Assembly (NCBI GenBank): GCA_947247005.1
Contig: OX365944.1
Span: 18,203,501-18,267,500 of the forward strand
Direction of reading: 5' to 3'
From: Spisula solida
Lineage: Eukaryota > Mollusca > Bivalvia > Venerida > Mactridae
DNA: 64,000 bases
Position numbers and translations under genes: made by a program. Below are positions 15,525-40,640 of the stretch, piece by piece (the stretch's first letter is position 1; every line of letters starts with the position of its first letter). The notes under the pieces are model-generated. The model saw only the letters and a list, made by a program, of their open reading frames with translations, ran no database searches and was not told where the DNA came from.

Positions 15525-15528
15525 AAAG
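15525..15528. other. Empty target site of the LTR element
   Basis: In copy A the sequence GGGTCAGCAAAGGAACATTC is uninterrupted. In copy B the retrotransposon splits the same sequence and AAAG is present on both sides. Confidence 0.9.
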
Positions 15529-15993
15529 GAACATTCCTGCTATTATTAATTATAATGCAATCGGGCAAGCAGTTTCTCAGAAGAAGATTTCTATATAGCC
15601 ATATAGTTAAAACAAGCCCCGCCCCTGGCAGCCATGTTGTTTATGGAATCAACATTAAAACTAGGATTTGGGTAGAGGATCAGCCAATGAACATTCCTAA
15701 GAAATATATTTCAATCAGGCAAGCAGTTTCTGAGAAAAGTTGGTAAATTCATATCTATCAAGAAATGAGGGATGTATCAGTCAATGTGTTCACAAAGAGG
15801 GATACATAACTCGAAACAATAACGTGAGGATGAGCAGGTTATGACTTTAAGAGGATGATCATCTACCCTGTGTCCGACACTTATGGATCGGCCTTATCCA
15901 TTATTCAGTTTGGTAAAGTTTTTGCTTTACTATTCAGTGCACTATTTTATAGTTTAAATTAAGACACTATTGGTGTATGAGTCAATTGTAAAA

Positions 15994-16625: not shown

Positions 16626-16862
16626 CTGAATTTTGGCTTAAACTTATGCAGCGTACATCATCCTTTTGATCAATAATGAACGTTTTCTAAGGTTATGTGA
16701 TAAATAGAATCTTACATTCGTGGTCATTACATACGAGTTTTATTAAACTCCTCGACAAAAACAATATGACACTCGGCAAAGCCTCTTCTCATATCATTTT
16801 GTCCACTCGTTTAATAAAACTCGTATGTTATGAGCACTCATGCAAGATCGTCTATATAATGC
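16619..16862. repeat. Hairpin element H1
   Basis: The arms TACGAGTTTTATTAAAC (about 16731) and GTTTAATAAAACTCGTA (about 16809) are complementary. The loop region contains CACTCGGCAAAGCCTC. Ends carry GTGATAAATAGAATC on the left and ATGCAAGATCGTCTATATAA on the right. The flank 16619-16690 (TACCGCTGAATTTTGGCT) recurs beside hairpin H2 in mirrored orientation and so belongs to the element. The matching place in copy B (about 32460-32530) has no hairpin. Confidence 0.8.
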
Positions 16863-18853: not shown

Positions 18854-19201
18854 TTTTCTTCTTAAATATCCCAAGAAACTACAACTATAGCAAAAGTCAT
18901 TACATATCTATGACAACGAGTTCGTATCGAACTGTAACTGCTTTAAAATTTGTTTGTAGTTTTTGATACATCATTCCACAACAAGGAAGTTATTTGAATC
19001 GTCACATGGGAATTCTTTCAACACGAGATACATCATTGCTGCATGTCTCATTAAAATATTTGACATGCATCGTCAGTCATAATAGATAAACACTGTTATT
19101 CCAGGGTAACACATTGTTTTATATTCTACTGTAAATAAATAAGTATAAGCTAAACTCAGTCTGATTTTATTTCAGAACTTGAATTCTATGAACACGGTTG
19201 A

Positions 19202-19575
19202 CAATATAGAGGATCTTGCATGAGGGCTCATTACATACGAGTTTTATTAAACGAGTGGACAAAATGATATAACACTCGTATGTAATGAGCACGAATGTAC
19301 GATTCTATTTATCACATAACCTTAGAAAACGCTCATTATTGTTCAAAGGTATGATGTACGCTGCATATATTTCAGCCAACATTCAGCGGTACATTGAGCG
19401 CGACGTCATGGAGACGTTGATATTATTCTGACGTCAATGACGGATCAATGCATGAATTGGCTAACGTCACTTCAAGCTAATTTAAATATTTATTGCACAG
19501 TCTGGGAGTGCCGAACGATATTTACGGCACGGCTTTACGGCACTCCTGGACCGCAGGTTATGTGATAAAAGTGTG
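19202..19575. repeat. Hairpin element H2 with a second palindrome
   Basis: At 19202-19321 the arms CTCATTACATACGAGTTTTA and CACTCGTATGTAATGAGC pair around GGACAAAATGATATAA. The ends AGAGGATCTTGCATGAG and GATTCTATTTATCACATAAC match the end motifs of H1 in reverse. The flank TACGCTGCATATATTTCAGC also mirrors H1. A second palindrome at about 19500-19555 pairs CTGGGAGTGCCG with CGGCACTCCTGG. Related sequence is at 40799-40870. Confidence 0.75.
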
Positions 19576-20670
19576 TATTGGAATTGACTGAAGATGCGTC
19601 TTTAAAGAGATCAGTATACTTATACGAGGGCTTTGTACAGTTTCGGAACAAGCGACGTAATATTTTATTTCTGAATATGTTCAATGCAATTGTCTTCACA
19701 TTGCATGTTCCATCTCTATATCAAAAATAGAATATATCAAAAATAGAATATAGCAACCTAACATGAAACACATTTAATGTATATTCATTTGATCACAACG
19801 TTTCGACCAGACGACTTCTTCAGGTAATGATTATAGTCATCTCTATATCTGCATACTAATATTCTTCCATAAAGACTATTGATTCTATACATATGGCAAC
19901 TTAACGTAAACAAGACACTGCCAAGCAATTAAAATAATAAGACACTTGTCTTGAACATCCCACGTAGATCAAATCAATTGTTGATTCATATGCTTTGACA
20001 TACCGTTTCTTTCACCATACAATATAGATACAAACTGTGGTGGGCATTAAATCATGGTATTCAATAAAGGACTGTCTAGCGATTTGAATAGATGACGGTT
20101 GAGAGATGCAATGCAATTGAACACCAGGCGCATACACTATGGCACATACTTACCATTGACTGTAACTGCTGGCTATCTTTGGGAATAAACTTTGCAGAAA
20201 TGCATGAATTATTGCGTAAAAATATGTTATTAGACAGATGTATGCATTGAATTAGATACATAAAATTCTCAGTGTAGAATAAATTAACAGCAATAATAGT
20301 AACACCAATTATAATCCAACAATGACAATGGCTATGTGATATACGAGTGTTCAAGAAAAAGCAAGTACAAAAGTAGTGTACGCCAATCTAGTATTTACCC
20401 GAAAGTGGTTACTAGGCTAACTGTCGGCGTATACAGGTACATGACTGGAAATTTTTGTCAAATGACATCAAACATAATAATGAATAACATAACCAGCTTA
20501 TTAGCTAGGAGTGTTAGCTCAACATTCTTAAATCATGTAATGCCTGAAAAATAGCCGTTGAAGAAGCTTTGCTACGATGGCAGAGATATCAGTACTATAC
20601 TCACACGTTAGTCGTTAGCTACTCAATTTACAACAGTAAAGCTAGATGACCCTGTCTTGTTTCATTTATA

Positions 20671-21200
20671 TTGTGATCGCCATTTTGTCCGTCGTCCGTC
20701 GTCCGTCGTCCGCTGTGCACCGTCAACAATTGGACTGTTAACCCTCTAGAGGTCATAATTTTCACATAATCATTTTTAAACTTGGTCACAATATTTGTCT
20801 CTATGAAATCTAGATCATGTTCGTCACTGGGACATCTGGGATCAAAAACTAGGTCATTAGGTCACATCAAAGAAAAACATTGTCAACACTCTAGAGATCA
20901 CATTTTTGACATAATCTTAATGAAACTAGGTCACAATGTTTGACTCTGTAGAATCTATGTCAAGTTTGAAATTAGGTCATCTGGAGTAAAAAACTAGGTC
21001 ACCAGGTCACGTCAAAGAAAAACCTTGTTTATTCTCCAGAGATCACATTTTATACCTCATCTCTATTAAACCTGGCAACAAAGTGTGTCACTGTAAAATC
21101 TAAATCAAATATTTAGGTAATATCATTACAAATACTGATTCTGCCTAATCTGCTAGTCATCAGGTGAGCGCTTTAGGGCCAATGACCTTCTTGTTTCCTT
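20671..21200. repeat. AGCTCACC-type repeat, copy 2
   Basis: Duplicate of 14340-14870 within copy B. It starts after the AGCTCACC end and ends with CATCAGGTGAGCGCTTTAGG. It has an extra GTCCGTCGTCCGTC microsatellite unit near 20690. Confidence 0.7.
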
Positions 21201-21859
21201 GTTCATTTTGATTTTTGTGTTTATGAGTTGTACTCGTAATATGTAATGTTTTGTGTGTTCCTGTGTGTGTTTCTGTTGTGTGCTCCATTCGCTGCTCAAT
21301 GGGTTATTATCTTTTCATCATTTTTGCATTTCCACTGGGATCAAAACATAATATAAATTTAAGTATGGTGAAACTAAACTGAATATGGGTCATACAAATA
21401 CATGTTTTATGTTTTTGGTGAACGTGAAAAGAAATAATGAAAGCAACAACACTGTCTTGATTGGACATAGTTTGTTCTGATGGCATGTTGCATGTCGCCC
21501 CGAGTTCAAACTGGCGTTATATTTAAGATTTTTGTTTCTCATATCTTCTGTTCTAATCTAACCAATCAGAGAAGCTCCCATTGGAGTCAAATGCGTGTGA
21601 AATAATGAGTAACATGTGATAGTTTCTTGCTATCGAACATTCTCTCGATGAACAGGTCATTTGTGTTTTTCCAACAATTTGGTGATCAAATTTAGATGCT
21701 TGACTTTTCAAGTCTATGCATTTTAAGTTGAAAGATATACCGGACAGGTAGTTTATGCCCATCATGTCAACCTATGTAACCATGTACAAGTCCCGCCCAT
21801 GGAAGTTATTATTTCTTAACAACTCTATAAAGAAATTAGGAATTTGGTAGAAGGTCAGC

Positions 21860-21863
21860 AAAG
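21860..21863. repeat. Target site duplication (left)
   Basis: AAAG directly before the 5' LTR. It is repeated directly after the 3' LTR at 31675-31678 and is single in the empty site at 15525-15528. Confidence 0.9.
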
Positions 21864-22101
21864 TGTAGTATTTGTACGTCGGAACAGCGGGCCGGCTGTT
21901 CCAACCATAACAAGTGGTATCAGCCAATCAGAAGCGTCCTGGTCTGACGTATGCGCTGGGCCAGGCTTGTCAGCATGTGTTCGCTCTCTGTGCATTAATA
22001 CCTGATACTGGAAAGACGTACCCGAAGTTTCTACTTCCCACTTAGGTGAGTTAAACTTACATACTGTCTTACTGTATTCCATGTAGTGACAATTCACTAC
22101 A
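21864..22101 (+). repeat. 5' LTR
   Basis: Starts TGTAGTATTTG and ends TTCACTACA, with TG...CA ends inside a 6-bp inverted repeat. Possible promoter sites are a CCAAT box at 21924 and a TGACGT motif at 21945; no clear TATA box is seen. A consensus splice donor AG|GTGAGT lies at 22044-22051. The last 20 bases form TGTAGTGA-CAAT-TCACTACA, a perfect 8-bp hairpin ending exactly at the LTR edge. Confidence 0.95.
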
Positions 22102-22103
22102 TT

Positions 22104-22121
22104 TGGCGCCGCGAGCATTTG
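22104..22121 (+). promoter_or_regulatory. Primer-binding site
   Basis: TGGCGCCGCGAGCATTTG starts two bases after the LTR, as expected for a site complementary to the 3' end of a tRNA (CCA end). The TGGCGCC core implies a tRNA ending GGCGCCA. I could not assign the tRNA. Confidence 0.7.
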
Positions 22122-22915
22122 TTCCTTCGCGTGAAATAGCTTACGCGTTTGTTGATATCTGTGCTAGTTTGGGGGATTGACTTACGTTCAATCGTTGGAA
22201 TATTTGCGTGAAGTGCAGTGCAGGCCGCTATTGAGCTTGCACCACGTAAACATTGTTTCCAACAATTTCTAAGTGTTGTTGTCCACAAAACAGTGGGACA
22301 AGGACGCTATTTTGTGCCTTAAATCGTCGCAGGGATTTTTATTTTTCCCGTGGTGTGAGCGGCCATTGTTTGCATCACGTGATATTTTTTCTTGGCGACG
22401 TAAGGCGCTATAGGTTATTTCTTGCTGTTTTACGTATCGTAGGGTGATATTTTGTCGGGAACACGGATATATTTTGAATAAAAATATTTTTCCGCGCTGT
22501 GAATTGCCATTTTCGAGATTCTCATCTGGATTTGCACCGCGACTTCCTGTTTCCGGTTATTCACCTACGAGCCGTGTTGGCAAGTTAATTTCACTAAAAC
22601 TGAACGTAAACTCCCAATAAGAACAGATATTGAACATCTTATCTTGCACTTTATGTAATTTGAAGGACTGAACCATAGTTTTATGCCCTTGTAATACTTT
22701 TTGGGGTTATTTTGATTTATTTTATGGTTGACTGATTTTCAACACAAAAACAATTTGTTTGGGGTATTTTATAAATTTTTTGTACGTGACTCTGGTTCAT
22801 TTGTCCTTACCAATTGGCTCATTGTTTATTATTGTTGTTGACCCTAAATTGTATACCCTTGTGTTATTGACCTGGTAATTCATTGTACATCAACTTTATT
22901 AGACCTTATTTAAAA
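22122..22915 (+). other. Untranslated leader of the retrotransposon
   Basis: About 800 bases between primer-binding site and first credible start, with several short upstream open frames and no conserved domain. It may carry packaging signals. Nothing specific can be identified. Confidence 0.6.
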
Positions 22916-23284
22916 ATGGCTCAAAAACCAATCCTAGTTCACATTAATTATGATAGTTTCGAAAATTTGCAAAAATTGGAGAACATTGGGCCTGCAAGGG
23001 CTAATCAAATTGTGAAACTCCGCGGAAATAGACCATTTACCATTCAAAATATAAATGATATAAGCGGTATAACAATAACGGAGGAGTTCTTGAATTGCAT
23101 TAGTTTTAATATGCCCCATTATCCTTACAGTAAGGAGGTGTTGGAGAATCTTGGAATGTGTTCTGGTGGGGAGTCAGATACGGACACGTATGTGGCCGGA
23201 CCTGTTCTCACTACACAGACTGTTGAACAAGATTCGGAACTAACAATGCTTAATTCAATGCCAGAGAATTCCTCACAGGGATAA
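22916..23284 (+). CDS. Small helix-hairpin-helix protein (N-terminal Gag-like ORF)
   Basis: Predicted 122 residues from the first ATG at 22916. Residues about 8-52 form a ComEA-like helix-hairpin-helix unit: an IN-x-DSFENLQKL helix, the NIGPARANQIV hairpin (residues 23-33), a second helix and the closing ISGI. In known families this fold binds DNA or RNA backbone without sequence preference. The C-terminal half is acidic and unstructured. The frame stops at TAA 23282-23284, but the next 12 codons stay open in the same frame and lead directly into the Gag ATG. Either this is a separate small protein, or HhH and Gag were one protein and the stop is a lesion or leaky. The fold call rests on pattern recognition; the biological role is inference. 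Confidence 0.75.
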   Translation: MAQKPILVHINYDSFENLQKLENIGPARANQIVKLRGNRPFTIQNINDISGITITEEFLNCISFNMPHYPYSKEVLENLGMCSGGESDTDTYVAGPVLTTQTVEQDSELTMLNSMPENSSQG

Positions 23285-23320
23285 ATAACTATTCATAGAG
23301 CCAATGCACATAAAGGCGAC

Positions 23321-24820
23321 ATGCCAATTAAATCAGAAGGTTTTAATGAACCTGAAGATATTGAGGTATCTGAGGGGACAGGGTTAGATTCCCAGCCCCT
23401 TAACCCAAATGTGGCGGATGAGATGAGGGGGTGTATAGATGTTATAACAGAGTTCCAAAAACGTAAATTGGAGCTACCTAAAAATGACATCCGTCAAAAT
23501 ATCCAGAGCACTCGCCCCAAAGAATGGGCTAAGCGTTCAGAATATAAGACTAAGACCCCTGTTTCTCAATCCACTAAGCTTTACACCAACAACAGACAAG
23601 ATAATTATCGATCTCCCTCTCGCGAAAGAGATACTGATTACTATGATCACCATCAAGGTAGTGGTTGGAGGGAGCCTGCAGAAGCCGAACAAAATTTGGT
23701 TGGCATTCTAAAAGGCACTCTCCAAACCACTCAGATGTTGGCGGACATGATGAGGGAGGGTGGTCACCGTTCTAGGGACATGGGGAACAGAACGGCTGAA
23801 AGAAGGGCTAATACCCAGAAAATGTGCCAAATTCCCAAGCCCTTAATATATAATGGGACCACCGAATGGAAAACATGGCTTAGGAAATTCTTAAGTTTCT
23901 GTATAAACAGTGGCTGGGAGGGAGAATCTCGAAAATCTGTTATGTTGTGGTGTCTGGATGGAAAGCCAGCTGATTACTATGCTAATCTGCTGGACAGACA
24001 TCCAGATATATCATATAACCAATTAGAGGCCAATTTAACTAAGCGCTTTGGAAAGAAAGACATTCCGGAGAATTTAATGGCAGAATTCACTACTGCCTGT
24101 CAAAAAGACGACGAAGACTTAGATGATTGGGCAGACAGGATTTCTGACCTGGCATTCAGGGCGTTTCCAGAACTCCCTGATGGCAGGATAGAACAATTGT
24201 CTGTCACCAGGTTCTGTCAGGGTTGCAATGACAAGAAAGCGGGGCACATGGTCATAACTGGCCCAAGCCGCCCTTCTTCTGTCGATGCAGCCGTGGAGGC
24301 CATAAGGTGGCATAATCTCAATCATCATGTCATTTTTGGTAAGCCTAAATCAGTAAGGGCTGTGACTATGGAGGAGACGGCTGCTAGCTCTAGTGAGCGA
24401 GTGGTAGTCTCGCCCTCTGTCATGGCCATTACAAACTCTCCAAGTCGTGGTGCTAGACCCATCAACCCTAGAGAAAGCTCAGGGTCCCCTTCCGCGTCCT
24501 TGTCTGACCGGGTTACTAACCTAGAAAGGCAAATGGGCAAGGTTTTGGGGATGTTGAGTGATATCAAGGGGGCAGTGGACAAATTGACCTCTGATCCTAA
24601 GAAGGTAAGGTTTGAAAAGTCGCCCTCTCCCATGCGTAGCAGAACATATAACACAAAGATATGTTATGCATGCAAACAAGAGGGCCACTTCGCAGCCAAA
24701 TGCCCTAATAAACGACCTAATACTTCTAGGTCAGTTTCATATGTGTCCGGCGACCAAAATGAGTTGGACCGTCCCCTAGAGGATTCGGAAAACTACATGG
24801 GGTCGGACACGGAGGCCTAA
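23321..24820 (+). CDS. gag: Gag
   Basis: Predicted 499 residues, opening with ATG at 23321. The first 150 residues are charged and rich in Ser/Pro/Arg. Residues about 170-330 resemble the capsid region of Ty3/gypsy Gag (EWKTWLRKF, a Trp/Leu-rich helix set and DDWADRISDLAFRAFP). A CCHC zinc knuckle CYACKQEGHFAAKC lies at about residues 448-461, as in nucleocapsids that bind genomic RNA. The acidic tail ends at TAA 24818-24820 inside a predicted frameshift pseudoknot. Gag would form the cytoplasmic particle in which reverse transcription occurs. The upstream HhH frame is in phase with it. Confidence 0.92.
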   Translation: MPIKSEGFNEPEDIEVSEGTGLDSQPLNPNVADEMRGCIDVITEFQKRKLELPKNDIRQNIQSTRPKEWAKRSEYKTKTPVSQSTKLYTNNRQDNYRSPSRERDTDYYDHHQGSGWREPAEAEQNLVGILKGTLQTTQMLADMMREGGHRSRDMGNRTAERRANTQKMCQIPKPLIYNGTTEWKTWLRKFLSFCINSGWEGESRKSVMLWCLDGKPADYYANLLDRHPDISYNQLEANLTKRFGKKDIPENLMAEFTTACQKDDEDLDDWADRISDLAFRAFPELPDGRIEQLSVTRFCQGCNDKKAGHMVITGPSRPSSVDAAVEAIRWHNLNHHVIFGKPKSVRAVTMEETAASSSERVVVSPSVMAITNSPSRGARPINPRESSGSPSASLSDRVTNLERQMGKVLGMLSDIKGAVDKLTSDPKKVRFEKSPSPMRSRTYNTKICYACKQEGHFAAKCPNKRPNTSRSVSYVSGDQNELDRPLEDSENYMGSDTEA

Positions 24821-24855
24821 GTTCGACCCAAAATACTTGGTGTACAGGGCCTCCG
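24787..24855 (+). promoter_or_regulatory. Predicted -1 ribosomal frameshift signal (heptamer plus H-type pseudoknot)
   Basis: The pol frame is -1 relative to gag and open from 24763, leaving a 55-base overlap. In it, GGAAAAC (24787-24793) lies in phase as G GAA AAC. After a 6-base spacer comes stem 1, 24800-24808 with 24821-24829 (9 bp, one G-U). Its loop contains CGGAGGCC (24810-24817), which pairs perfectly with GGCCTCCG (24848-24855) as stem 2. Loop lengths are about 1, 3 and 18 bases. This is the textbook geometry of retroviral and coronaviral -1 frameshift signals. The heptamer is not ideal (GGA rather than three equal bases at the start), but its A-site part AAC is the efficient type. 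Confidence 0.75.
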
Positions 24856-27800
24856 CCTTCTGAGTTAGTGGACAGCGCGAGTAGTGATATCATTGACGCT
24901 TGGGACGTAGACGCAGCGCCTGAGACAGTAACTGTCTGTCAAATGCGTTCTGGGTCTATGTACCGGGTGCCTGTTGGAGTCAATACCTTGCGTACTCAGG
25001 CGGTTGTTGACACAGCAGCCGAAGTGTCCATAATCTCTGACTCACTGTATAGGAGAATGGAACCAAAACCAAGGTTCATTAAAGGGGTGACTTTACATAC
25101 GGCCGGGAAACAATTAGATATGTATGGGTTTATTGTGGGTCCAATTCGTCTTCAGCTTGGGGGAAAAACTTACAACATGTGTGTGTATGTGGCTCCCATA
25201 GAGGATGAAATGTTGCTAGGGTTGGATTTCTTAAAGACCTATGGGGTTCAACTGGATTTACAAAAGTCCAATCTCACAATAGGTCCAGAGATCATTACCA
25301 TGGCTGTGGGCTCATTCCACAACGCCCCTACTGTTTCCACGGTCAAAGTTACTAAACGAATTGTAATTCCCCCTAATTCCATGGCTCATGTACAATGTGG
25401 GTTAGAACAGGATTTATCTCAATTTGTGATAGAACCTGTTGACAACAGTAGGTTTCTTATGCCACGTACAGTACACACGTCGGGTACTAATACCAGAGTA
25501 TGTGTATTGAATGTGGCAGATACCTACGTCACTTTAAGGAAAGGGCAAAAGATTGCTGAGGCTCATATGGCATGCACGGTAGAACCAATACCAGCAGAGC
25601 TGGAGTCTGGTTTTCGGGCATGTTCTGTTCAAGCAAACACTTCGGGGAAAACTTCCCTAGTGCCGGAACATTTAGAAAGCATGGTTAAAAATTCTATATC
25701 CGAATTGGATAAAAATCAGGCACTTGAGTTTGCACAGTTAATAAATGAGTTTCAGGATGTCTTTGCCAAAACTGATTTCGATCTTGGGGGGTTTAAAGAT
25801 ATCCATCACCATATCGATACCGGGGACGCGAGGCCTATTAAACAAAAAATGCGTCGCACTCCACTTGGCTTTGCTGCTGAGGAGGAGGCGCACCTACATC
25901 AAATGCTTAAATCAGGGGTAATTCAACCCTCCATTTCTGAATGGGCCTCACCCCCTGTATTGGTGCGTAAAAGAAATGGGTCACTAAGATGGTGTTTAGA
26001 TTATAGGGCCTTAAATAATGTCACAATTAAGGACGTCTATCCATTGCCCATCATAGAGGAGTGTCTAGATGCTTTGTACGGCAACTGTTGGTTCTCTAAA
26101 TTGGACGCCAATTCTGCATATTGGCAAATACCAATTGCGGAAGAGGATAGACCAAAAACTGCATTTGTCACTAAGTATGGCCTATTTGAATTTGTTAAGT
26201 TGGCATTTGGTTTATGCAATGCGCCTGCAACATATTCAAGGGTTATCGGACTGGTTTTAAGGGGTCTCGCATGGAACATAGTTTTAGCCTTTCTTGACGA
26301 CATCATGGTCCTGGGGAAAACATTCCAGGACCACTTACAAAATCTGAGAAAGGTATTTTTGAGACTAAGGCAATACAAACTTAAATTAAAGCCTAAGAAA
26401 TGCGAGTTCTTTAAGACCACGATTGACTTTTTAGGCCGCACTGTCTCAGGCGAGGGTCTATGTATGGCAGACGAGTCCATTAAAGTGATAAAAAATTGGC
26501 CCGTACTTCAAAATTCAAAAGATGTTGAACGCTTTCTGGGATTAGCTAATTATCATCGGGGTTTCATCAAAAATTTTGCCCAGATTGCTGCGCCCCTCTA
26601 TAGGTTAACTGGAAAAAATGCATTTTCATGGGGGGCTGAACAAGAAACAGCATTTAACAATTTAATTTTGGCTTTAACATCGGCACCAGTTCTCACTATA
26701 CCCAATGGGCAAGATGTGTTCATATTGGATACCGTTGCTTCAGGGGTTGCAGTGGGAGCTGAGCTTATTCAAATACAAAATGGGGAAGAAAGAGTTATTG
26801 CATATGCTAGTTGTGCTTTGTCTCCCGAGCAAAGAAAGTACTGTACTACCAGACTGGAATTGCTGGCGGTCATAAAGTTCACTAGACAGTTTCGTCATTA
26901 TTTGCTAGGACATAGGTTTAAAGTTCGCACTGACCACAGTAGTCTAACCTGGTTGTTGAATTTCAAGAACCCTCAAGGTCAGATTGCAAGATGGTTGGAA
27001 GAACTGAGCCAATATGACATGGAAGTGTGTCATAGACCAGGTTCCAAGCACTCTAATGCCGATGCACTATCTAGATTACCTAATTCTGAGGGGTGTAGAC
27101 ATTACAAATTAGGTTGGGGGGTTGAGAATTTACCTTGCGGTGGGTGTCCATATTGTCAACGAATGCATAAAAATTGGTCTGAGTTTGCTTCCAACGTAGA
27201 TGAGGCAGTACCCTTGACCACCAAAAACTTTGTTGACGATTCACCCACAGCTTGTGCAGTTTCTCATGGATCAGCTGGAAAGGGCGACATTGGGGACTCT
27301 CCCCACAGCCACTTTCAGATAATATCCAATGAGGGTAAAAGTGAAATTGGGGAAAGCGTTTCTGTCTGGGCTGTTAACGGGGCTACACCTGGTTTGACAT
27401 ATTGGGGTTTTGATAAAAATCTGTTAATTGAGGCCCAAAACAAAGATCCAGAACTAAAACCATTGCTGGACTGGTTGATGGATGGAAAGGAGCCCATTGA
27501 GGGTACCTTATTCCGATCAAGTCCAAGTACCAAGTTCTACTGGATCAATAAGGATATGTTCACTCTGTCAGGGGGGGTCTTATGGCGCGAGAACCCTGAA
27601 GATGAGGATAAGTTACTGGTTATTCCTGAGTCCCTCAAACTTGAGGTTTTGTGTCTAAACCATGACTTACCCTCCGGGGGTCATCAAGGTATGGAACGTA
27701 CAAAGGCCAAACTCAAACAAAAGTACTTTTGGCATGGCCTGGGAGCGGATACCCAAAGGTATATTGCATCGTGCGTTCCTTGCAACCAAGGCAAACGACC

Positions 27801-28176
27801 TAATCGTAAGTCAAGGAGCCCCCTAAAGAGTTTTCAAGCCGGTTCTCCCATGGAAAGGGTGAACATTGACTTCTTGGGACCTCTAACACGCACTGAGAGG
27901 GGAAATGAGCACGTACTCATGATTGTGGACCAGTTCACAAAGTGGGTAGAGTGTATTCCATTGCCTTCTCAGACAGCGGAAGTAACAGCTAGGGCCTTGA
28001 TCAATGAGTTTTTTAGTAGATTCGGGTTTCCTTTTGAAATATTTAGTGATCAAGGCAGAAATTTCCAAAGTAACTTGTTCTCTAAATGTGTGAAATTACC
28101 AAAATTCATCAAGCCAAAACTACCCCATACAGACCGTCCGGTAACGGCCAAGTGGAACGTTTTAATAGAACTTTAA
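24793..28176 (+). CDS. pol: Pol: protease, reverse transcriptase, RNase H, integrase (5' part)
   Basis: Reached by -1 frameshift from Gag; there is no ATG at its head. In order: an aspartic protease with DTA at 25009-25017 and GLDFL further on; reverse transcriptase with the FLDDI catalytic box (Asp pair at 26296-26301); RNase H; integrase with an HHCC zinc site (His at 27661 and 27682, Cys at 27772 and 27781) and the first two acids of the DDE triad (27868, 28048). The RNase H keeps Glu 26857, Asp 26932 and Asp 27061, but its first acid (usually in a T-D-A-S motif) is Val (GTT, 26734-26736). The frame runs off into unrelated codons after about 28085 and stops at 28176. The lost base there separates the DDE glutamate from the rest. 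Confidence 0.93.
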   Translation, partial: LHGVGHGGLSSTQNTWCTGPPPSELVDSASSDIIDAWDVDAAPETVTVCQMRSGSMYRVPVGVNTLRTQAVVDTAAEVSIISDSLYRRMEPKPRFIKGVTLHTAGKQLDMYGFIVGPIRLQLGGKTYNMCVYVAPIEDEMLLGLDFLKTYGVQLDLQKSNLTIGPEIITMAVGSFHNAPTVSTVKVTKRIVIPPNSMAHVQCGLEQDLSQFVIEPVDNSRFLMPRTVHTSGTNTRVCVLNVADTYVTLRKGQKIAEAHMACTVEPIPAELESGFRACSVQANTSGKTSLVPEHLESMVKNSISELDKNQALEFAQLINEFQDVFAKTDFDLGGFKDIHHHIDTGDARPIKQKMRRTPLGFAAEEEAHLHQMLKSGVIQPSISEWASPPVLVRKRNGSLRWCLDYRALNNVTIKDVYPLPIIEECLDALYGNCWFSKLDANSAYWQIPIAEEDRPKTAFVTKYGLFEFVKLAFGLCNAPATYSRVIGLVLRGLAWNIVLAFLDDIMVLGKTFQDHLQNLRKVFLRLRQYKLKLKPKKCEFFKTTIDFLGRTVSGEGLCMADESIKVIKNWPVLQNSKDVERFLGLANYHRGFIKNFAQIAAPLYRLTGKNAFSWGAEQETAFNNLILALTSAPVLTIPNGQDVFILDTVASGVAVGAELIQIQNGEERVIAYASCALSPEQRKYCTTRLELLAVIKFTRQFRHYLLGHRFKVRTDHSSLTWLLNFKNPQGQIARWLEELSQYDMEVCHRPGSKHSNADALSRLPNSEGCRHYKLGWGVENLPCGGCPYCQRMHKNWSEFASNVDEAVPLTTKNFVDDSPTACAVSHGSAGKGDIGDSPHSHFQIISNEGKSEIGESVSVWAVNGATPGLTYWGFDKNLLIEAQNKDPELKPLLDWLMDGKEPIEGTLFRSSPSTKFYWINKDMFTLSGGVLWRENPEDEDKLLVIPESLKLEVLCLNHDLPSGGHQGMERTKAKLKQKYFWHGLGADTQRYIASCVPCNQGKRPNRKSRSPLKSFQAGSPMERVNIDFLGPLTRTERGNEHVLMIVDQFTKWVECIPLPSQTAEVTARALINEFFSRFGFPFEIFSDQGRNFQSNLFSKCVKLPKFIKPKLPHTDRPVTAKWNVLIEL

Positions 28177-28427
28177 TGGATGCCGTCAGGTGTTTTGTAC
28201 AAAAATCTCCAGGTACTTGGGATTTATACCTACCTCATATAAGTGGGGCTTTACGGTCTTGTGTCAACAGAGACACTGGCTACTCGCCCAACAAATTGAT
28301 GTTAGGAAGGGAGGTCTGTTTACCTGCAGATTTGCTATATCCATTAAATATGGGGGTACTTGGTGATAACAAAACACAGGACGAGTATTTAGCTGAATTA
28401 GAGGGATCCATGATCGAGGCCAACTGA
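28086..28427 (+). pseudogene. Integrase, central-to-C-terminal fragment after the frameshift
   Basis: This frame carries integrase on from where Pol loses it at about 28085, in an A-run. The GNGQVERFN motif with the third catalytic acid (Glu, 28155-28157) and the following helices are typical of Ty3/gypsy integrases. Allowing one missing base, the distance from the second Asp gives the family's D-X35-E spacing, which points to loss of exactly one nucleotide. The frame ends at TGA 28425-28427, but the same frame reopens immediately after, so the TGA interrupts the original protein. It would not be translated as an independent protein. Confidence 0.85.
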
Positions 28428-28928
28428 ATCGCCAGGGAAAAACTTAAGGGAGCCCATAAACGTATGAGTCGGGACTATGACCTAAAAATCCTACAAAAAC
28501 AATATGACACTGGGGATTTGGTTTATGTTCTGAACTCACACGTCCCGAAAGGGAAAAGTAGAAAACTTGCACCAGTGTGGAAGGGTCCAGGAATAATAGT
28601 TGCAAAAATGTCAGCATCCATTTACAAGATAAAATTCCGTTCTATCATATTTACTGCCCACCATGACAAAATTAAAAAATGTTTGGATCGTGAATTACCC
28701 TCTTGGTTGGAAAAATTCAGGGATAACATACAACTATGGAATAAATCAGTACCTAAGGTGGACTCCGGGTCTGATTCAGTTGTGTATTGTCACTGTAGAC
28801 AGCCATACCAGCAGAGATTCATGATCCAATGTGATGCATGTGCAGAATGGTTTCATGGCGCTTGCGTTAATTTAACACCTGTGGATGCTCTCGATATCGA
28901 CGAGTACTTTTGCTCGAATTGTAATTAA
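28428..28928 (+). pseudogene. Integrase C-terminal domain fused to a PHD finger
   Basis: In phase with the preceding fragment and separated from it by a single TGA; the first ATG in it is 28464. The N-terminal part has the basic helix and TGDLVYVLN / [10 protein letters not shown] strands of a gypsy integrase C-terminal domain. A PHD finger follows at 28788-28922 with all eight zinc ligands, C-X1-C-X11-C-X2-C-X4-H-X2-C-X15-C-X2-C. The residues at Tyr (before the first Cys), Tyr (RQPY), Met (RFMI) and Trp (EWFH) match the aromatic cage used by KDM7/PHF8-type PHD fingers to read H3K4me3. The finger takes the place that a chromodomain has in chromoviruses, so a role in choosing integration sites is likely but inferred. 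Confidence 0.85.
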
Positions 28929-28932
28929 TATT

Positions 28933-28982
28933 CTTAACATTGTATACTTTCAGGTTAAGAACCATTTCCATTTCGGTAAGTT
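28933..28982 (+). promoter_or_regulatory. Candidate splice acceptor before ORF3
   Basis: A branch-point-like CTTAAC at about 28933 and a TACTTTCAG acceptor ending at 28953 lie between the PHD finger and the ORF3 start. A donor-like CG|GTAAGTT follows at about 28974-28982. With the donor AG|GTGAGT in the LTR, this could create a subgenomic mRNA for ORF3. Prediction only. Confidence 0.4.
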
Positions 28983-28995
28983 AGGACATTTAACA

Positions 28996-29853
28996 ATGAA
29001 TAAGATAATTGAAACCACCACTAAAATAGAGACGGCCTTAACTAATGGGCAGTTAATTCCGCCCAAACAGTTATTGGAAGGTCTCCTGGGCATGACGGTT
29101 GGATTTCCTGATGAGGAGTTCAAACGTCTTGTAAAGGAGATGTATCAATTGGCCGTAAGTGGGGGAAATTGGGGTTGGGTTGAACAAGCCCAGCTCTATG
29201 CTCCCACATTTTTTAGTAGTCGGTGGATATTAGACAATATCCCTCATAAGAATTCCCGTAGGAATAAGGTCTCCATCCCAAAACAGGTCAAGGTCCAAGA
29301 GCTCTCGGGGGTGTGTAAGGATGTAAGGTTATTGGATGATAATAACAATCTCCAAGTCTTGAGGGAGGATGCGGCTGTTGGTGGTGATCTAGGTCTGTCA
29401 CCTGAAGAGGAGGACAAGCTTTTAGCTAGTCCTACTGCAGGAGACATTATGGCAGAGTCTATGGCAGACTCCGCTATGGACACTAGTGAACCAATCGTAC
29501 CTCCTTCTCCTGCTCCGGTGCCTGTTGTCAAAATTACAACTAAGAAAATGGGGACAAAAGGGGAAAAAGAGGGAGGTAAAAATAAGGAGAACAAGCGTCC
29601 TAAAACAAAGGGTCCAGGTTCATGTCCAGTTCAGGGGTGCATGCATAGGTCAAGAGCTCTAAGACCTCATGTGGTCGGAAGGCATCTGCCTAAGTCATTT
29701 AAACTTTTTATTACGGATTTTAAGGTGTGCAAGATTGATGTGGGTAAGGTTGCCCAGCAAATTAAGTCTCTAAAGGAGTTGGGTAAGGTCATCAATGGTC
29801 AAAAAGATGTTGGGCTGGTCGACCTGGTTGAAATGGTAAATAGTAGGGGTTAA
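28996..29853 (+). CDS. ORF3 N-terminal part with a C2H2 finger
   Basis: Predicted 285 residues from ATG 28996, the first credible start after the acceptor-like site; an upstream ATG at 28885 overlaps the PHD codons and is less likely. Residues 1-90 look helical. An acidic Pro/Ser linker and a Lys-rich stretch (KGEKEGGKNKENKRPKTKG) follow. A zinc finger C-X4-C-X9-H-X4-H lies at residues 210-230 (CPVQGC ... HVVGRH). It has no signal peptide or membrane segment, so it is not an envelope. The frame stops at TAA 29851-29853 but continues open in phase into the TatD domain. A nucleic-acid-binding role is likely from the finger and basic region. Confidence 0.75.
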   Translation: MNKIIETTTKIETALTNGQLIPPKQLLEGLLGMTVGFPDEEFKRLVKEMYQLAVSGGNWGWVEQAQLYAPTFFSSRWILDNIPHKNSRRNKVSIPKQVKVQELSGVCKDVRLLDDNNNLQVLREDAAVGGDLGLSPEEEDKLLASPTAGDIMAESMADSAMDTSEPIVPPSPAPVPVVKITTKKMGTKGEKEGGKNKENKRPKTKGPGSCPVQGCMHRSRALRPHVVGRHLPKSFKLFITDFKVCKIDVGKVAQQIKSLKELGKVINGQKDVGLVDLVEMVNSRG

Positions 29854-31035
29854 ATTCCGGCGGGTGTTGTGGTCACTTCTGAGTTTCAGAAGTATTTAAA
29901 GGCCTTATGTGTTTCTCGTGGTTGGGAATTACCTAAGGGAGGGTTTAGTTTCTTTCCTTTAAATTCAGTGGCATGCTTATTTCATTGGAGACCAATTGTG
30001 GCGTTAGTCAACATGGTTTCCAAAGAGCAAGCCACAGAGTGGAAAAGGGCTAAGTCTGACCTGGGTAGGGTTAAGTCTGTTGCATCTAAGGCAGTTGCAA
30101 CCGCTACCCTGTCAACCAAGGTAGCTGAAGTGTTAAAAGACCTAAGTTTACCCTCCACTCAAGTAGTAGTAAGGCCTAAGGTTAAAACCTCTTTTTCATG
30201 TAGGACTCTAAGTGCAATAGACAGTCATATGCACGTAAATCGACTGGGGGGAAAATTGCGTGGCAAGTCAGGCATTGACTATATTTTCAATGACTCTTTG
30301 GCCTCCCCAGTTCCCGTGAATCTGCTCGGTATTGTGGCTGTGTATTGCGACCCGGAAACTTTTCCAGCAGAGGTCCCTACCGATCCAAGGGTTAGGATGG
30401 CAATAGGAGTGCACCCTCGCAAAATTCATGATCTCACTCGAGAGAGGGAGCTAAGGTTTCAAAATATATTGGCACACTCCGCCATTGTGTCCCTAGGGGA
30501 AGTAGGCCTGGACCTCACGGAAGACCGGGTTTCTTATGATGAACAGGTCTTTTTTCTGAACCACTTTCTTGGTGCGTACTGCACCACGTCTAGGACACTC
30601 GTTCTTCATTTAAGGGGAAATAACACGGTAAAGGGCCTGGCTATCTTTTCCACAGCATTTGAGATAGTTAAAAACCACTGTGGGAAACTCCAACCTATCC
30701 ATTTACATTGCTTTAGCGGCAACTATTTTGACGTAGAAGGTTGGAGTTCATATTTCACTAACTGTTATTTTGGCTTCACAGCATCGGTTATGTACTTCTC
30801 CCCAGACCAGGTGGCGGGTCTCAAACGAGTCCCAGATGACAGACTCTTGGTAGAAACGGATGCTCCATACCTGTCCCCAAGAGGGTCTCCTCATGTAAAT
30901 CGTCCTTGTTTTATAGGGGAAGTGGCAAAAATGGTTTCGGACTGGAGGGGAGTTTCTCTCCCATCTGTCCTTAAATCCACCGTGGAAAACACCAGGAGAT
31001 TGTACCGTTTCAGCCAGGAGTTGGTTTCTACCTAA
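29854..31035 (+). CDS. TatD-family metal-dependent nuclease domain
   Basis: Open from directly after TAA 29851-29853 with no ATG until 30013, which argues that it was the C-terminal half of one ORF3 protein. The TatD fold (TIM-barrel DNase, PF01026 type) is clear: the HxH motif in AIDSHMHVNRL (30226-30234), AIGVHP, GEVGLD with the bridging Glu, VLHLR with its His, PIHLHCFSG with its His, and LLVETDAPYLSP with the terminal Asp. All six metal-binding positions of the family are kept. TatD enzymes are 3'-5' exonucleases or endonucleases acting on single- or double-stranded DNA. In a retrotransposon it could process cDNA ends, but that is inference. About 95 residues of Lys/Val-rich linker precede the barrel. 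Confidence 0.88.
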   Translation: MPAGVVVTSEFQKYLKALCVSRGWELPKGGFSFFPLNSVACLFHWRPIVALVNMVSKEQATEWKRAKSDLGRVKSVASKAVATATLSTKVAEVLKDLSLPSTQVVVRPKVKTSFSCRTLSAIDSHMHVNRLGGKLRGKSGIDYIFNDSLASPVPVNLLGIVAVYCDPETFPAEVPTDPRVRMAIGVHPRKIHDLTRERELRFQNILAHSAIVSLGEVGLDLTEDRVSYDEQVFFLNHFLGAYCTTSRTLVLHLRGNNTVKGLAIFSTAFEIVKNHCGKLQPIHLHCFSGNYFDVEGWSSYFTNCYFGFTASVMYFSPDQVAGLKRVPDDRLLVETDAPYLSPRGSPHVNRPCFIGEVAKMVSDWRGVSLPSVLKSTVENTRRLYRFSQELVST

Positions 31036-31164
31036 TGGGGGAAGGGCTTTATTTTAGTCTATACTGTGGTCAACTTACATTACAGCCCCCGAGAACATTT
31101 TCAATTTAAGACAATTTTTACTTAATCAGTTACTGTATTTTAAATTAACTATTTGATAGCAACT

Positions 31165-31335
31165 ATGGTTCTGGGTCTGGAAAACAAGTCTTCTTATACT
31201 TGGGTTCCATTTCATTGTCCCTATGATAGGGGGGCGTGGATCATTATCCTATCTTGCGTTCAGGTGCCCATGTGGCTACCTGTTTGGCTGGGATTTTTTA
31301 TGAAATTATGGTATATATTTATCATGCCCACGTAG
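31165..31335 (+). CDS. Possible small hydrophobic protein in the 3' region
   Basis: An ATG-initiated frame of 56 residues between the TatD stop and the polypurine tract. The second half (from WIIILSCVQVP on) is hydrophobic and rich in Trp and Phe, compatible with one membrane segment. No family is recognised, and a chance open frame is quite possible. Confidence 0.2.
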   Translation: MVLGLENKSSYTWVPFHCPYDRGAWIIILSCVQVPMWLPVWLGFFMKLWYIFIMPT

Positions 31336-31422
31336 GGTGCCTTTTGGATTCTGCAACCTACTTTTTGTAAAAGATGGGGTTTTCTAAATGGGGTCTTTAT
31401 CCTGGGTGGGGGTTGATTTTAT

Positions 31423-31436
31423 AAAGTTGGGGGGAA
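31423..31436 (+). promoter_or_regulatory. Polypurine tract
   Basis: AAAGTTGGGGGGAA lies directly before the 3' LTR. The uninterrupted purine run GGGGGGAA (31429-31436) is the likely plus-strand primer. Confidence 0.8.
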
Positions 31437-31674
31437 TGTAGTATTTGTACGTCGGAACAGCGGGCCGGCTGTTCCAACCATAACAAGTGGTATCAGCCAA
31501 TCAGAAGCGTCCTGGTCTGACGTATGCGCTGGGCCAGGCTTGTCAGCATGTGTTCGCTCTCTGTGCATTAATACCTGATACTGGAAAGACGTACCCGAAG
31601 TTTCTACTTCCCACTTAGGTGAGTTAAACTTACATACTGTCTTACTGTATTCCATGTAGTGACAATTCACTACA
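31437..31674 (+). repeat. 3' LTR
   Basis: 238 bp, identical to the 5' LTR in every base I compared, including the donor-like AGGTGAGT and the terminal 8-bp hairpin. Identity means little time since insertion. Confidence 0.95.
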
Positions 31675-31678
31675 AAAG
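31675..31678. repeat. Target site duplication (right)
   Basis: AAAG directly after the 3' LTR, matching 21860-21863. Confidence 0.9.
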
Positions 31679-31860
31679 GAACATTCCTGATGAATTATAA
31701 TGCAACGTCAAGCAGTTTCTCAGAAGAAGACTTCTATATAGCCATATAGTTGAAACTAGCCCCGCTCCTGGCAGCCATGCTTTTTGTTTGCTTTACTATT
31801 CAGTGCACTATTTTTATAGTTTAAATTAAGACACTATTGGTTTATGAGTCAATTGTAAAA

Positions 31861-32460
31861 AGATTATATTAAGTCAGACAGGGAAGGCAGCACTTAACTT
31901 AACCAGCCAAGCACATAAAACATTAAAACCCTACAAAGCACGATGCCCAACCGACCCAACCGAGCACATGAAACACATACAAGGCACAATGCCCAACAAA
32001 ACAAGCTGTCGAAAAGTATAACAAATTAATAGTTTCAGCAACCAAAAACCTTAATGCTCTAGCTGAATGACCAAGTTTCTACAGCAAAACGACTATAATG
32101 CCTAGTTTTAGCTGTCAGAAATCTTAAAACGAAGAAGTGCCCAACACACTGCCATCAACGAAAATGAATCAGCCCTATTCCCAGCTGTTAAAAAGCTGAA
32201 TGGAAAAGTTTCAGCAAACAAAAGGCGGAATCCCTACGCTGAATGACCTAGATACAACAGTAAAACTGCTGAACTACATAGTTATAGCTGCCACAGTTAG
32301 ATCTATTTGAAAACACAGAGAAAAAAGTAATATAAAGCCCGACAGGGAAAGCAGCACTCACCTTAACCAGCCGAGGACAGAAAACATTAAAACACACAAG
32401 TCACAATGCCCATCTGAACAAGTAAACATCCCAAGTCCAAGCTGGCGAAAAGTATAATCA
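31861..32460. repeat. Dispersed repeat R1, long and short copies
   Basis: Counterpart of 15994-16625 in copy B, with the full R1 at 31861-32300 and a second start at 32331. Small deletions distinguish it from copy A. Confidence 0.75.
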
Positions 32461-33710
32461 ATTAGTTTCAGCAACCAAAAAACTGAATGTCCTTGCTAAA
32501 CGACCCAGTTTCCACAGTAAAACGACTATAATGCTTAGTTCTTTTAAAAATAAAAGAATACTTCATTAGGTACAGAATAGATAGAATTGTCTAGTGTCGT
32601 TGACGTTCGTGTGTATCAGATTTATAATTCCTGAATTGGAAAGGATGTTCCCTAATTTGTTTGTCGTCGAATTACAACAAGGTGATCAGTTTTTTGCCCA
32701 AAAAACAGAACTGGTTTACATTCTTTATTTCATGCCACGATACCCCCAGTTATACACATATCGAACATTAGCAAACTTAATTATTATACAGTAAAATATC
32801 ATTGGGGTATAATATTCAATAGAATAGCAATACATTTATGATAACATTTTAGTATGCAAGTGTTGAATTGTAATAAACGTACTTTGTGGCAAGATACTAC
32901 AATGAATAAATGGAAACTATAATGGAAGACTGCACGTGCAAACAATTCTAAGATCTAAACAAGTACCATGAGTACGGTTTAATATGCACGACATATTTAT
33001 CTAAATCTTACAGATACCCACTGTGCAAACTGTCTGCCTCTCACATAATGTTTCCTTGAACGCAGGGCTGATGTCACCCCGTTGCCAACAAAGATAAACT
33101 AATCGACGTACCACTAATGCGTACTAGCAAGAAAGTAACAACCATTTAATAAGTTGCTTTATGTGTCATTTCTGATGTGTCGTGGTATACTGCACGTGTT
33201 CAGGTAGTGCCTGAATTAAACACGTTACAAAATTACCCTCGTTTAGCACTTGATGAATACAATGAGCTTTCCAATCAATAGAGTCAACATGACATGTCTT
33301 GTGATCTGAAGTGCAGTGAATCAGCCAGTCATTAGTTTTCTATTCCCAATGACAAATATCTTGAAGCATATCCTGCAATTATAAAACTATGGTAGACAAG
33401 TGCGTCATTGAATATTCACACACCACATTATAAAAGCAACCCACTCAATATACAATATCATATTAACTGTTACAGTTAGCATACTTATTCATACACAAGT
33501 TCCTATCTGAAAAGTAACGTAAACAATGAACAATGTACTAACAAGACCCATGTTGAAAGTTACCACAGGGGATAAAACAAAGAAAAAACCTGTTTTATTA
33601 CTTTAAGCAACAATTTATGAAGTGAACATACCCGTACTTGTGCAAATTGATACATATGTGCAATAAAGGGTTAGTTGGAGGGTAATGACTTAATGACACT
33701 GTTTACAATT

Positions 33711-39016: not shown

Positions 39017-40640
39017 GATAACAAAATCGGACAGGGCAGCCAACTCTCAACAGAAGCAGCAGAGCACGGAAGACACAAAATGGAAACCCTCATAACGTGG
39101 GTAAGGGTCAACAGACAATAAATCATCATAACCTGGGTAAGGATCAACAGACAATAAATCACCATAACCTGGGTATGGGTCAACAGACAATAAATCACTA
39201 TAACCTGGGTAAGGGTTAACAGACAATAAATCACCATAACCTGGGTAAGGGTCAACAGACAATAAATCACCATAACCTAGGTAAGGGTCAACAGACAATA
39301 AATCACCATAACCTGGGTAAGGGTTAACAGACAATAAATCACCATAACCTGGGTAAGGGTGAACAGACAATAAATCACCATAACGTGGGTATGGGTCAAC
39401 AGACAATAAATCACCATAACGTGGGTAAGGGTCAACAGACAATAAATCACCATAACCTGGGTAAGGGTCAACAGACAACAAATCACCATAACGTGGGTAA
39501 GGGTCAACAGACAATAAATCACCATAACGTGGGTAAGTGTTAACAGACAATAAATCACCATAACCTGGGTAAGGGTCAACAGACAATAAATCACCATAAC
39601 CTGGGTAGGGGTCAACAGACAATAAATCACCATAACCTGGGTAAGGGTCAACAGACAATAAATCACCTTAACCTGGGTAAGGGTCAACAGACAATAAATC
39701 ACCATAACCTGGGTAAGGGTCAACAGACAATACATTACCATAACGTGGGTAAGGGTCAACAGACAATAAATCAACATAACGTGGGTAAGGGTTAACAGAC
39801 AATACATCACCATAACCTGGGTAAGGGTCAACAGACAATAAATCACCATAACCTGGGTAAGGGTCAACAGACAATAAATCACCATAACCTGGGTAGGGGT
39901 CAACAGACAATAAATCACCATAACCTGGGTAAGGGTCAACAGACAATAAATCACCATAACCTGGGTAAGGGTCAACAGACAATAAAACACCATAACCTGG
40001 GTAGGGGTCAACAGACAATAAATCACCATAACCTGTGTAAGGGTCAACAGACAAAAAATCACCATAACCTGGGTATGGGTCAACAGACAATAAATCACCA
40101 TAACGTGGGTAAGGGTCAACAGACAATAAATCACCATAACCTGGGTAAGGGTCAACAGACAATAAATCACCATAACCTGGGTAAGGGTCAACGGACAATA
40201 AATCACCTTAACCTGGGTAAGGGTCAACAGACAATGAATCACCATAACCTGGGTAAGGGTCAACTGACAAAAAATCACCATAACCTGGGTATGGGTCAAC
40301 AGACAATAAATCACCATAACCTGGATAAGGGTCAACAGACAATGAATCACCATAACCTGTGTAAGGGTCAACAGACAAAAATTCACCATAACCTGGGTAA
40401 GGGTCAACAGACAAAAAATCACCATAACCTGGGTATGGGTCAACAGACGAAAAATCACCATAACCTGGGTATGGGTCAATAGACAATAAATCACCATAAC
40501 CTGGGTAAGGGTCAACAGACAATAAATTACCATATTGTGGGTAAGGGTCAACAGACAATAAACACAATGCCAACCTACAAAGCTGCATCCAACGGAAACA
40601 ATACAATTATCATTTTAAAGCCGTCGTATGCAGTTGGCAA
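39017..40640. repeat. R1-like element hosting a minisatellite
   Basis: The flank AATCGGACAGGGCAGCC and AGAGCACGGAAGACAC resembles the start of R1. After the array AAACACAATGCCAACCTACA matches the CACAATGCCCAAC part of R1. The minisatellite therefore sits inside an R1-family element at the point where other copies have short GAAAACATTAAAACAC units. Confidence 0.6.
39089..40563. repeat. 36-bp minisatellite, about 41 units
   Basis: The unit can be read as AATAAATCACCATAACCT followed by GGGTAAGGGTCAACAGAC, 36 bases, repeated for about 1475 bases. Variants are confined to a few positions (CCTGGG/CGTGGG, AAGGG/ATGGG, CAACAG/TAACAG). As the unit is a multiple of three and lacks stops in several frames, long open frames appear on both strands (up to 424 codons on the minus strand, 12-residue period). 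They have no non-repeat domain and are not called as genes. Confidence 0.97.

What the first reader, a model, noticed from the sequence alone, without database searches (positions are those of the whole stretch)
28996..31035. LTR retrotransposon carrying a TatD nuclease fused in frame to a C2H2-finger protein
After Pol, where an envelope would sit, the element has a frame with a C2H2 finger and, in the same phase, a TatD-type barrel. All six metal-binding positions (HxH, Glu, His, His, Asp) are present. TatD is a host and bacterial DNase family, and I know of no standard Ty3/gypsy gene of this kind. Intact ligands in a copy that is otherwise broken suggest the activity matters to the lineage. 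Possible roles are cDNA end trimming, degradation of competing DNA, or resistance to host nuclease defence; these are guesses.
Basis: partly seen in the sequence, partly recalled or inferred. Interest (0 to 1): 0.88.

Follow-up and report, generated by a model that had tools for sequence, protein, structure and literature searches.

The report
Retrotransposon lineage carrying a TatD nuclease
A recently active jumping element, and seven distantly related families in the same genome, carry their own enzyme of a DNA/RNA-cutting family behind the integrase, kept intact by natural selection, in the place where a virus envelope gene would sit.

Summary
The window contains a 9,811-bp Ty3/gypsy-type LTR element (21864-31674): identical 238-bp LTRs, a 4-bp target duplication, and an empty site in a neighbouring duplicate. 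After Pol it encodes a third protein with a zinc-finger motif and a complete TatD nuclease domain (PF01026, E 1.5e-34; all six metal ligands). In this copy a stop codon, private to it among 13 copies, splits the frame; 10 of 12 sister copies keep one open frame. The host genome has 109 TatD matches. Of 40 stretches fetched, best-scoring mostly, 35 show integrase, a PHD finger and TatD in that order, in eight families 31-57% identical in TatD. TatD evolves at omega 0.13, like integrase (0.12), and its tree is compatible with the Pol tree. So TatD is an old, selected gene of this lineage, not a chance capture. The closest published kind found is the nuclease or esterase ORF3 of rotifer LTR elements; no TatD case appeared in the listings searched. 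Where this TatD came from and what it cuts are unknown. My best inference is 3'-end or hybrid processing during cDNA maturation or integration.

The parts
21864..22101 (+). 5' LTR, 238 bp, TGTAGT...ACTACA
   Evidence: 238 of 238 identical to 31437-31674
31437..31674 (+). 3' LTR, 238 bp
21860..21863 (.). target-site duplication AAAG, left copy (right copy 31675-31678)
   Evidence: 4-bp duplications also in 8 of 10 sister copies scored
15525..15528 (.). empty site AAAG in the tandem duplicate of the flank
   Evidence: left and right flanks meet there
22104..22120 (+). primer-binding-site-like TGGCGCC... just inside the 5' LTR
   Evidence: read directly; matching tRNA not tested
31426..31436 (+). 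polypurine tract GTTGGGGGGAA
   Evidence: read directly
22916..23284 (+). ComEA-like helix-hairpin-helix domain, same frame as Gag, ends at an in-frame TAA
   Evidence: HHH_3 E 3.9e-4, below Pfam cut-off; NCBIfam comE E 2e-5, below cut-off; PDB 8dfk E 0.002
23285..24820 (+). Gag frame with CCHC knuckle and PNMA-like capsid
   Evidence: zf-CCHC E 1.1e-4; PNMA E 9.2e-5, below cut-off
24763..28176 (+). Pol frame: protease, RT, RNase H, integrase start; -1 relative to Gag
   Evidence: PF00078 7.7e-30, PF17917 3.8e-30, PF17921 4.1e-16, PF00665 2e-8; best solved relative Ty3, E 1.3e-86
28086..28427 (+). integrase continued in another frame (frame broken in this copy), ends at TGA
   Evidence: rve_3 E 2e-4, below cut-off; the TGA is absent from the other 11 copies compared
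28428..28928 (+). integrase C-terminal SH3-like part, then PHD finger (about 28782-28925)
   Evidence: PF00628 E 3.5e-9; SH3-like matches weak and below cut-off; PHF2 PHD finger E 2.5e-15
28996..29853 (+). ORF3 N-terminal part with C2H2-type motif at 29623-29685; ends at a TAA private to this copy
29854..31035 (+). ORF3 C-terminal part: TatD nuclease domain at 30217-31008
   Evidence: PF01026 E 1.5e-34; model and fold search

Best explanation
A Ty3/gypsy-type LTR retrotransposon family belonging to an old lineage whose third gene (ORF3, in the envelope position) encodes a zinc-finger-motif protein ending in an active-looking TatD nuclease, and whose integrase ends in a PHD finger. Shown: the element and its insertion, the gene order in eight families, the conserved ligands, purifying selection as strong as on integrase, and trees consistent with co-inheritance with Pol. 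Inferred: ORF3 is a metal-dependent nuclease brought to nucleic acid by its finger, trimming 3' ends or clearing RNA, single strands or hybrids during cDNA maturation or at the integration site. The source of the TatD domain is unresolved.
For: Element and empty site. PF01026 match, ligands and TatD fold. 109 TatD matches in the host genome; integrase, PHD and TatD in the same order in 35 of 40 fetched stretches; ORF3 start within -44 to +82 nt of the Pol stop in 8 of 8 representatives. Metal ligands in 39 of 40 aligned sequences, finger ligands in 8 of 8 representatives. Omega 0.132 for TatD, lnL -7172 against -7492 at omega 1, and 0.118 for the last 300 codon columns of Pol. Neither the Pol nor the TatD data reject the other's topology (AU p 0.20 and 0.29). 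Element TatDs, including L143, form one clade at 100% support in a tree with 28 bacterial and viral TatDs and one host gene.
Against: No expression, activity or substrate data. Splice signals for an ORF3 mRNA are weak (acceptor P 0.047, and stronger acceptor-like sites lie inside ORF3). dS was not computable for 21 of 28 family pairs, so omega is approximate. Within the window's family TatD pN/pS is 0.50, a weak constraint on few sites. With eight taxa and some node supports of 49-63, the topology test has little power. Stretches were chosen best-scoring first, which favours intact copies.
Confidence: 0.72

Rival explanations
1. ORF3 nuclease is a counter-defence factor: it degrades host small RNAs, R-loops or competing cytosolic DNA that would trigger silencing or sensing.
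For: An accessory gene under strong selection outside the replication core. TatD domains occur in bacterial defence (distant QatD matches).
Against: Purifying evolution across families (omega 0.13), where an arms race might leave diversification. QatD similarity is only shared family membership (61.7 bits against a cut-off of 230).
Confidence: 0.2
2. ORF3 works with the PHD-integrase at the target: integrase docks on H3K4me3 promoters and TatD resolves the R-loops or single strands found there.
For: PHD finger closest to PHF2/PHF8 and present in 8 of 8 family representatives. [quoted passage not shown]
Against: No binding or insertion-site data. No special relationship to an animal TATDN gene was shown: over 159 shared columns the elements are 23-30% identical to the one host gene recovered and on average 23-27% to bacterial and viral TatDs.
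Confidence: 0.15
3. The TatD domain is kept for nucleic-acid binding or as a structural part, not for catalysis.
For: Activity was not tested. Catalytically dead nuclease derivatives that keep RNA binding are known in piRNA biogenesis (Maelstrom/EXD1, passage in PMC5408684).
Against: All six ligands and H187 kept in 39 of 40 sequences.
Confidence: 0.08
4. TatD is a recent chance transduction of a host gene into one element, without function.
For: Retroelements do capture host mRNAs (general knowledge).
Against: Present in eight families 31-57% identical in TatD, omega 0.13, tree compatible with Pol, only 23-30% identical to the one intron-bearing host TATDN gene recovered.
Confidence: 0.02

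Closest known systems
ORF3 of bdelloid rotifer LTR retrotransposons Juno and Vesta (DEDDy exonuclease, GDSL esterase; PMC5408684, passages seen)
   Same: An enzyme gene in the envelope position of an LTR element; one class is a DnaQ/RNase D-type 3'-5' nuclease.
   Different: DEDDy instead of TatD; there the ORFs are family-specific, the DEDDy one acquired at least twice, and the paper reports no significant departure from neutrality within a genome; here one gene is under strong purifying selection across families. The passages seen mention no finger-TatD gene; PHD occurs once in the text and its passage was not shown.
Orchid Ty3/gypsy elements with an m6A demethylase domain (PMC9289625, abstract passages)
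   Same: A Ty3/gypsy lineage that acquired an additional enzymatic ORF.
   Different: AlkB-type demethylase in plants, not a nuclease.
TatD/YcfH and TATDN nucleases
   Same: Whole domain, metal ligands, TIM barrel.
   Different: Cellular enzymes; here joined to a finger-motif protein inside a mobile element.
Chromoviruses (Ty3/gypsy with integrase chromodomain; recalled)
   Same: A histone-reader-type module at the integrase C-terminus.
   Different: PHD finger instead of chromodomain.

Membership tests
Ty3/gypsy (Metaviridae) LTR retrotransposon | Protease, RT, RNase H, integrase in this order | tested here: met
   Pfam positions 70-158, 401-560, 652-751, 954-1107 of the Pol frame; Ty3 best solved relative
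Ty3/gypsy (Metaviridae) LTR retrotransposon | LTRs, target duplication, polypurine tract | tested here: met
Ty3/gypsy (Metaviridae) LTR retrotransposon | RT placed within a named Ty3/gypsy clade by phylogeny | not tested
   no reference set of RT clades was at hand
Envelope-bearing errantivirus | Envelope glycoprotein in ORF3 | tested here: not met
   ORF3 C-terminal part is TatD; no envelope family in ORF3; membrane segments not predicted
Chromovirus | Chromodomain at integrase C-terminus | tested here: not met
   PHD finger there, no chromodomain match
TatD nuclease family (PF01026) | Profile match over the whole domain above cut-off | tested here: met
   120 bits, cut-off 27, positions 1-253
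TatD nuclease family (PF01026) | HxH, E, H, H, D metal ligands | tested here: met
TatD nuclease family (PF01026) | TIM-barrel fold | tested here: met
   24 of 28 ten-residue blocks from residue 121 on have pLDDT above 80; TM 0.82 to 1yix by target length, 0.57 by query length, rmsd 3.8
TatD nuclease family (PF01026) | Nuclease activity | not testable with these tools
   needs purified protein
TATDN2 subgroup | Groups with animal TATDN2 | not tested
   no TATDN2 sequence was at hand; one unnamed host TATDN fragment attaches between elements and bacteria and is no clearly closer to the elements than bacteria are
QatD anti-phage nuclease | NCBIfam QatD equivalog score | tested here: not met
   61.7 bits against 230
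Rotifer DEDDy ORF3 class | DEDDy exonuclease domain in ORF3 | tested here: not met
   ORF3 matches TatD only
PHD-finger histone reader | PF00628 match above cut-off | tested here: met
   37 bits, cut-off 24; close to PHF2/PHF8
PHD-finger histone reader | H3K4me3 binding | not testable with these tools
   needs a binding assay

The most novel reading that the evidence does not exclude
An ancient clade of animal Ty3/gypsy elements has, in place of an envelope, a finger-guided TatD nuclease that acts together with a PHD-reader integrase: the integrase docks at H3K4me3 promoters and the nuclease clears R-loops or trims ends there, so the element carries its own target-site preparation enzyme.
Probability: 0.15. 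Interest if true: 0.9.

Novelty: new variant of a known kind. Interest (0 to 1): 0.76.

Why it matters
Extra enzymatic genes in LTR elements are called rare (abstract of PMC9289625) and are hard to tell from passing captures. Here one is found in eight families with selection matching integrase, so it very likely does something the lineage needs. It gives a test system for what a second nuclease adds to retrotransposition, and the PHD-integrase makes a clear prediction about insertion sites. It may also bear on genes labelled TATDN2 in invertebrate genomes: one giant-squid Hox-cluster legend lists such a gene beside transposon-type genes (PMC6962438, passage), which is only a lead.

Tried and rejected
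Rejected: recent chance capture; bacterial or phage gene or contamination (phage and bacterial hits 22-36% identical; integrase and LTR context); a domesticated gene outside an element (LTR pairs and target duplications). My own idea that the TatD is of animal TATDN2 type is withdrawn: the tree only places one host TATDN fragment between elements and bacteria, and identities do not favour the host gene (elements-host 23-30%; elements-bacteria mean 23-27%, best single row 28-37%; host-bacteria mean 33%). For this I lowered the R-loop rival (0.20 to 0.15) and the novel case (0.18 to 0.15). L001 was a chance peptide match in a phage-like frame.

Led nowhere: IMG/VR scans with the integrase-PHD, ORF3 N-part and RT pieces found no relatives (single-sequence scans reach close relatives only). 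An IMG/VR scan with a TatD alignment gave 10 loci, whose surroundings were not examined. The single-sequence fold of the ORF3 N-part was poor (pLDDT 43). Splice-site scan weak; its matrices were recalled, not fetched. PHROGs gave nothing. The LTR of a third family was not delimited (45-bp match at the chunk edge). The eight short loci L097-L104 were not analysed; five of these places were fetched again longer.

Not answered: whether PHD-integrase elements without TatD exist, and how many LTR copies there are.

Literature, open-access library only. TatD with LTR retrotransposon (2 papers), with retroelement (2), with transposable element and gypsy (1), with retrotransposon and domain (13); TATDN2 with retrotransposon (8) (full lists seen). 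TATDN2/mollusc/expansion (20 of 6,456 listed) and TATDN2/putative deoxyribonuclease/bivalve/transposon (25 of 503 listed) were seen in part. PHD with Ty3/integrase (20 of 26 listed), with gypsy and mollusc (1), with chromodomain and LTR retrotransposon (15). None of the titles listed describes TatD in a retrotransposon; of the TatD/TATDN2 papers I opened passages in four. Other passages seen. Subscription papers and repeat databases were not searched.

Full report
What is there. The window lies in an unnamed 932-Mb assembly. An LTR element occupies 21864-31674. Its two 238-bp LTRs are identical. It is flanked by AAAG on both sides, and a tandem duplicate of the flanking DNA keeps the site empty at 15525-15528, so the 9,811 bp arrived as one insertion. 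It has a primer-site-like TGGCGCC after the 5' LTR and a polypurine tract before the 3' LTR.

Genes. In order: a ComEA-like helix-hairpin-helix domain in the Gag frame (weak but consistent matches, the profile ones below curated cut-offs); Gag with a CCHC knuckle; Pol with protease, RT, RNase H and integrase, whose best solved relative is Ty3; a PHD finger at the integrase end, closest to PHF2 and PHF8; then ORF3. ORF3 has an N-terminal part, a Cx4Cx9Hx4H motif, and a TatD domain that covers the whole PF01026 profile (E 1.5e-34). The copy is broken: in-frame stops end frames at 23284, 28427 and 29853, and the integrase changes frame near 28086. Three stops correspond to roughly 0.8% substitution (0.17-2.4%); with that much neutral change identical LTRs are unlikely (P 0.028 at 0.75%), so some lesions may predate the insertion.

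Is it TatD? Yes. Sequence, a 29-row alignment with 28 bacterial and viral TatDs in which E216, H252, H285 and D336 are invariant, an AlphaFold2 model (mean pLDDT 75.6; 24 of 28 ten-residue blocks from residue 121 on above 80) and a fold search agree. In the fold search the best 12 hits are TatD, YcfH or TATDN proteins; ranks 13-15 (3e2v twice, 3gg7) carry other names but match the TatD alignment profile. The ORF3 N-part alone folds poorly from one sequence, and no Pfam model detects the finger.

Relatives in the host genome. PF01026 has 109 matches there, a lower bound that includes fragments and separate exons. I fetched 40 stretches, 3.6 kb upstream and 1.7 kb downstream of TatD (the host gene with other margins), mostly the best-scoring places. 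In 35 of 40, tblastn with window pieces finds RNase H-integrase, integrase C-terminus and PHD finger upstream of TatD. The five without are L124, L136, L142, L143 and the intron-bearing host gene L144. Clustering the TatD domains (host gene left out) gives eight families plus L143 alone: at least 94% identity within, at most 57% between; L124, L136 and L142 belong to families that have the full order in other copies. The 12 sister copies of the window element are 96-100% identical in the compared protein pieces. Ten of these 12 keep ORF3 as one 719-codon open frame, one has 602 codons and one 410 after a deletion; 8 of 12 keep Pol open over the fetched part. The stop at 29851 is in 1 of 13 copies, and the stop at 28425 in 1 of 12, L110 left out.

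Activity of the family. For 11 of 12 sister copies I fetched the expected 5' LTR site. Ten could be scored: 8 have LTR pairs identical over 238 bp, one has 1 difference, one has 3; 8 of 10 have a 4-bp target duplication; in L108 no 5' LTR was found at that place. One second family (L125/L157) has a 368-bp identical terminal repeat that begins TGTAGT but does not end in CA, with TGTT on both sides. LTRs of the other six families were not delimited.

Selection. The six ligands and H187 are kept in 39 of 40 aligned sequences (window plus 39 loci; the host gene was not in this alignment). The exception is L143, with changes at H125, H187 and E216. The finger's C, C, H, H are kept in 8 of 8 family representatives. 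A codon model over the eight gives omega 0.132 for TatD (270 codons; lnL -7172, against -7492 or lower at omega 1 for the six kappa values tried), 0.199 for the poorly alignable ORF3 N-part and 0.118 for the last 300 kept codon columns of Pol on the Pol tree. The closest family pair has dN 0.33 and dS 1.82; dS was not computable for 21 of 28 pairs. Within the window's family pN/pS is 0.50 for TatD and 0.22 for the N-part on few sites (25 variable of 1,179 and 17 of 852), with 3' UTR divergence 0.0058 and LTR divergence 0.0123; young copies are not expected to show much constraint.

History. Protein trees of Pol and TatD share two groups (L107+L123; L125+L117 with L120), and neither data set rejects the other's topology (AU p 0.20 and 0.29). 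This fits TatD travelling with Pol, though eight taxa with several weakly supported nodes give little power. In a tree with 28 bacterial and viral TatDs the element TatDs, with L143 nested among them, form one clade (100%); a fragment of an intron-bearing host TATDN gene (three exons, 162 residues) attaches on the branch between elements and bacteria. The elements are not clearly closer to it than to bacteria, so the source of the domain is open.

How it may work. Shown: an intact-looking TatD enzyme and a finger motif, kept by selection, next to a PHD-integrase. Background: a matching NCBIfam model is named 3'-5' ssDNA/RNA exonuclease TatD (below its equivalog cut-off); metal dependence is recalled; a review passage says that TATDN2 resolves R-loops by degrading RNA (PMC12754012). 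Inferred: ORF3 processes 3' ends or hybrids during cDNA maturation or at the insertion site. Expression from a spliced mRNA is possible, but the signals are weak (acceptor at 28954, P 0.047; donor in the LTR, P 0.033).

Comparison. The nearest published kind I saw is the enzymatic ORF3 of rotifer LTR elements, DEDDy nuclease or GDSL esterase, both in one ORF3 in one species (PMC5408684, passages); orchid Ty3/gypsy elements carry an m6A demethylase (PMC9289625, abstract passages). None of the titles listed describes a TatD gene in a retrotransposon (the list was partial). A giant-squid figure legend lists a TATDN2-named gene beside transposon-type genes (PMC6962438, passage). I therefore rate it a new variant of a known kind.

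Limits.

Noticed in passing
window 28782-28925: PHD finger at the integrase C-terminus, closest to PHF2/PHF8, present in all eight family representatives; it occupies the place of a chromodomain.
   Followed up: partly
window 22916-23284: ComEA-like helix-hairpin-helix domain upstream of and in frame with Gag; not checked in the other families.
   Followed up: partly
window 48795-51880: About 3.1-kb element with roughly 400-460-bp terminal inverted repeats (96-98% alike), flanked by ATTGATAC on both sides, no frame of 90 codons: probably a non-autonomous DNA transposon.
   Followed up: partly
window 12470-17357, 18854-33036, 57398-59117: Tandem duplication about 91-92% identical, with a third copy about 77-81% identical; the LTR element sits in one copy only.
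   Followed up: partly
window 39091-40562: 36-bp minisatellite, about 41 copies; because 36 is a multiple of three it produces long open frames on both strands that need not mean anything.
   Followed up: no
L143 (G000:C1:55534157-55540131): 922-codon open frame related to ORF3 with an internal repeat array, metal ligands partly lost, no integrase found nearby: a decayed or possibly domesticated relative.
   Followed up: partly
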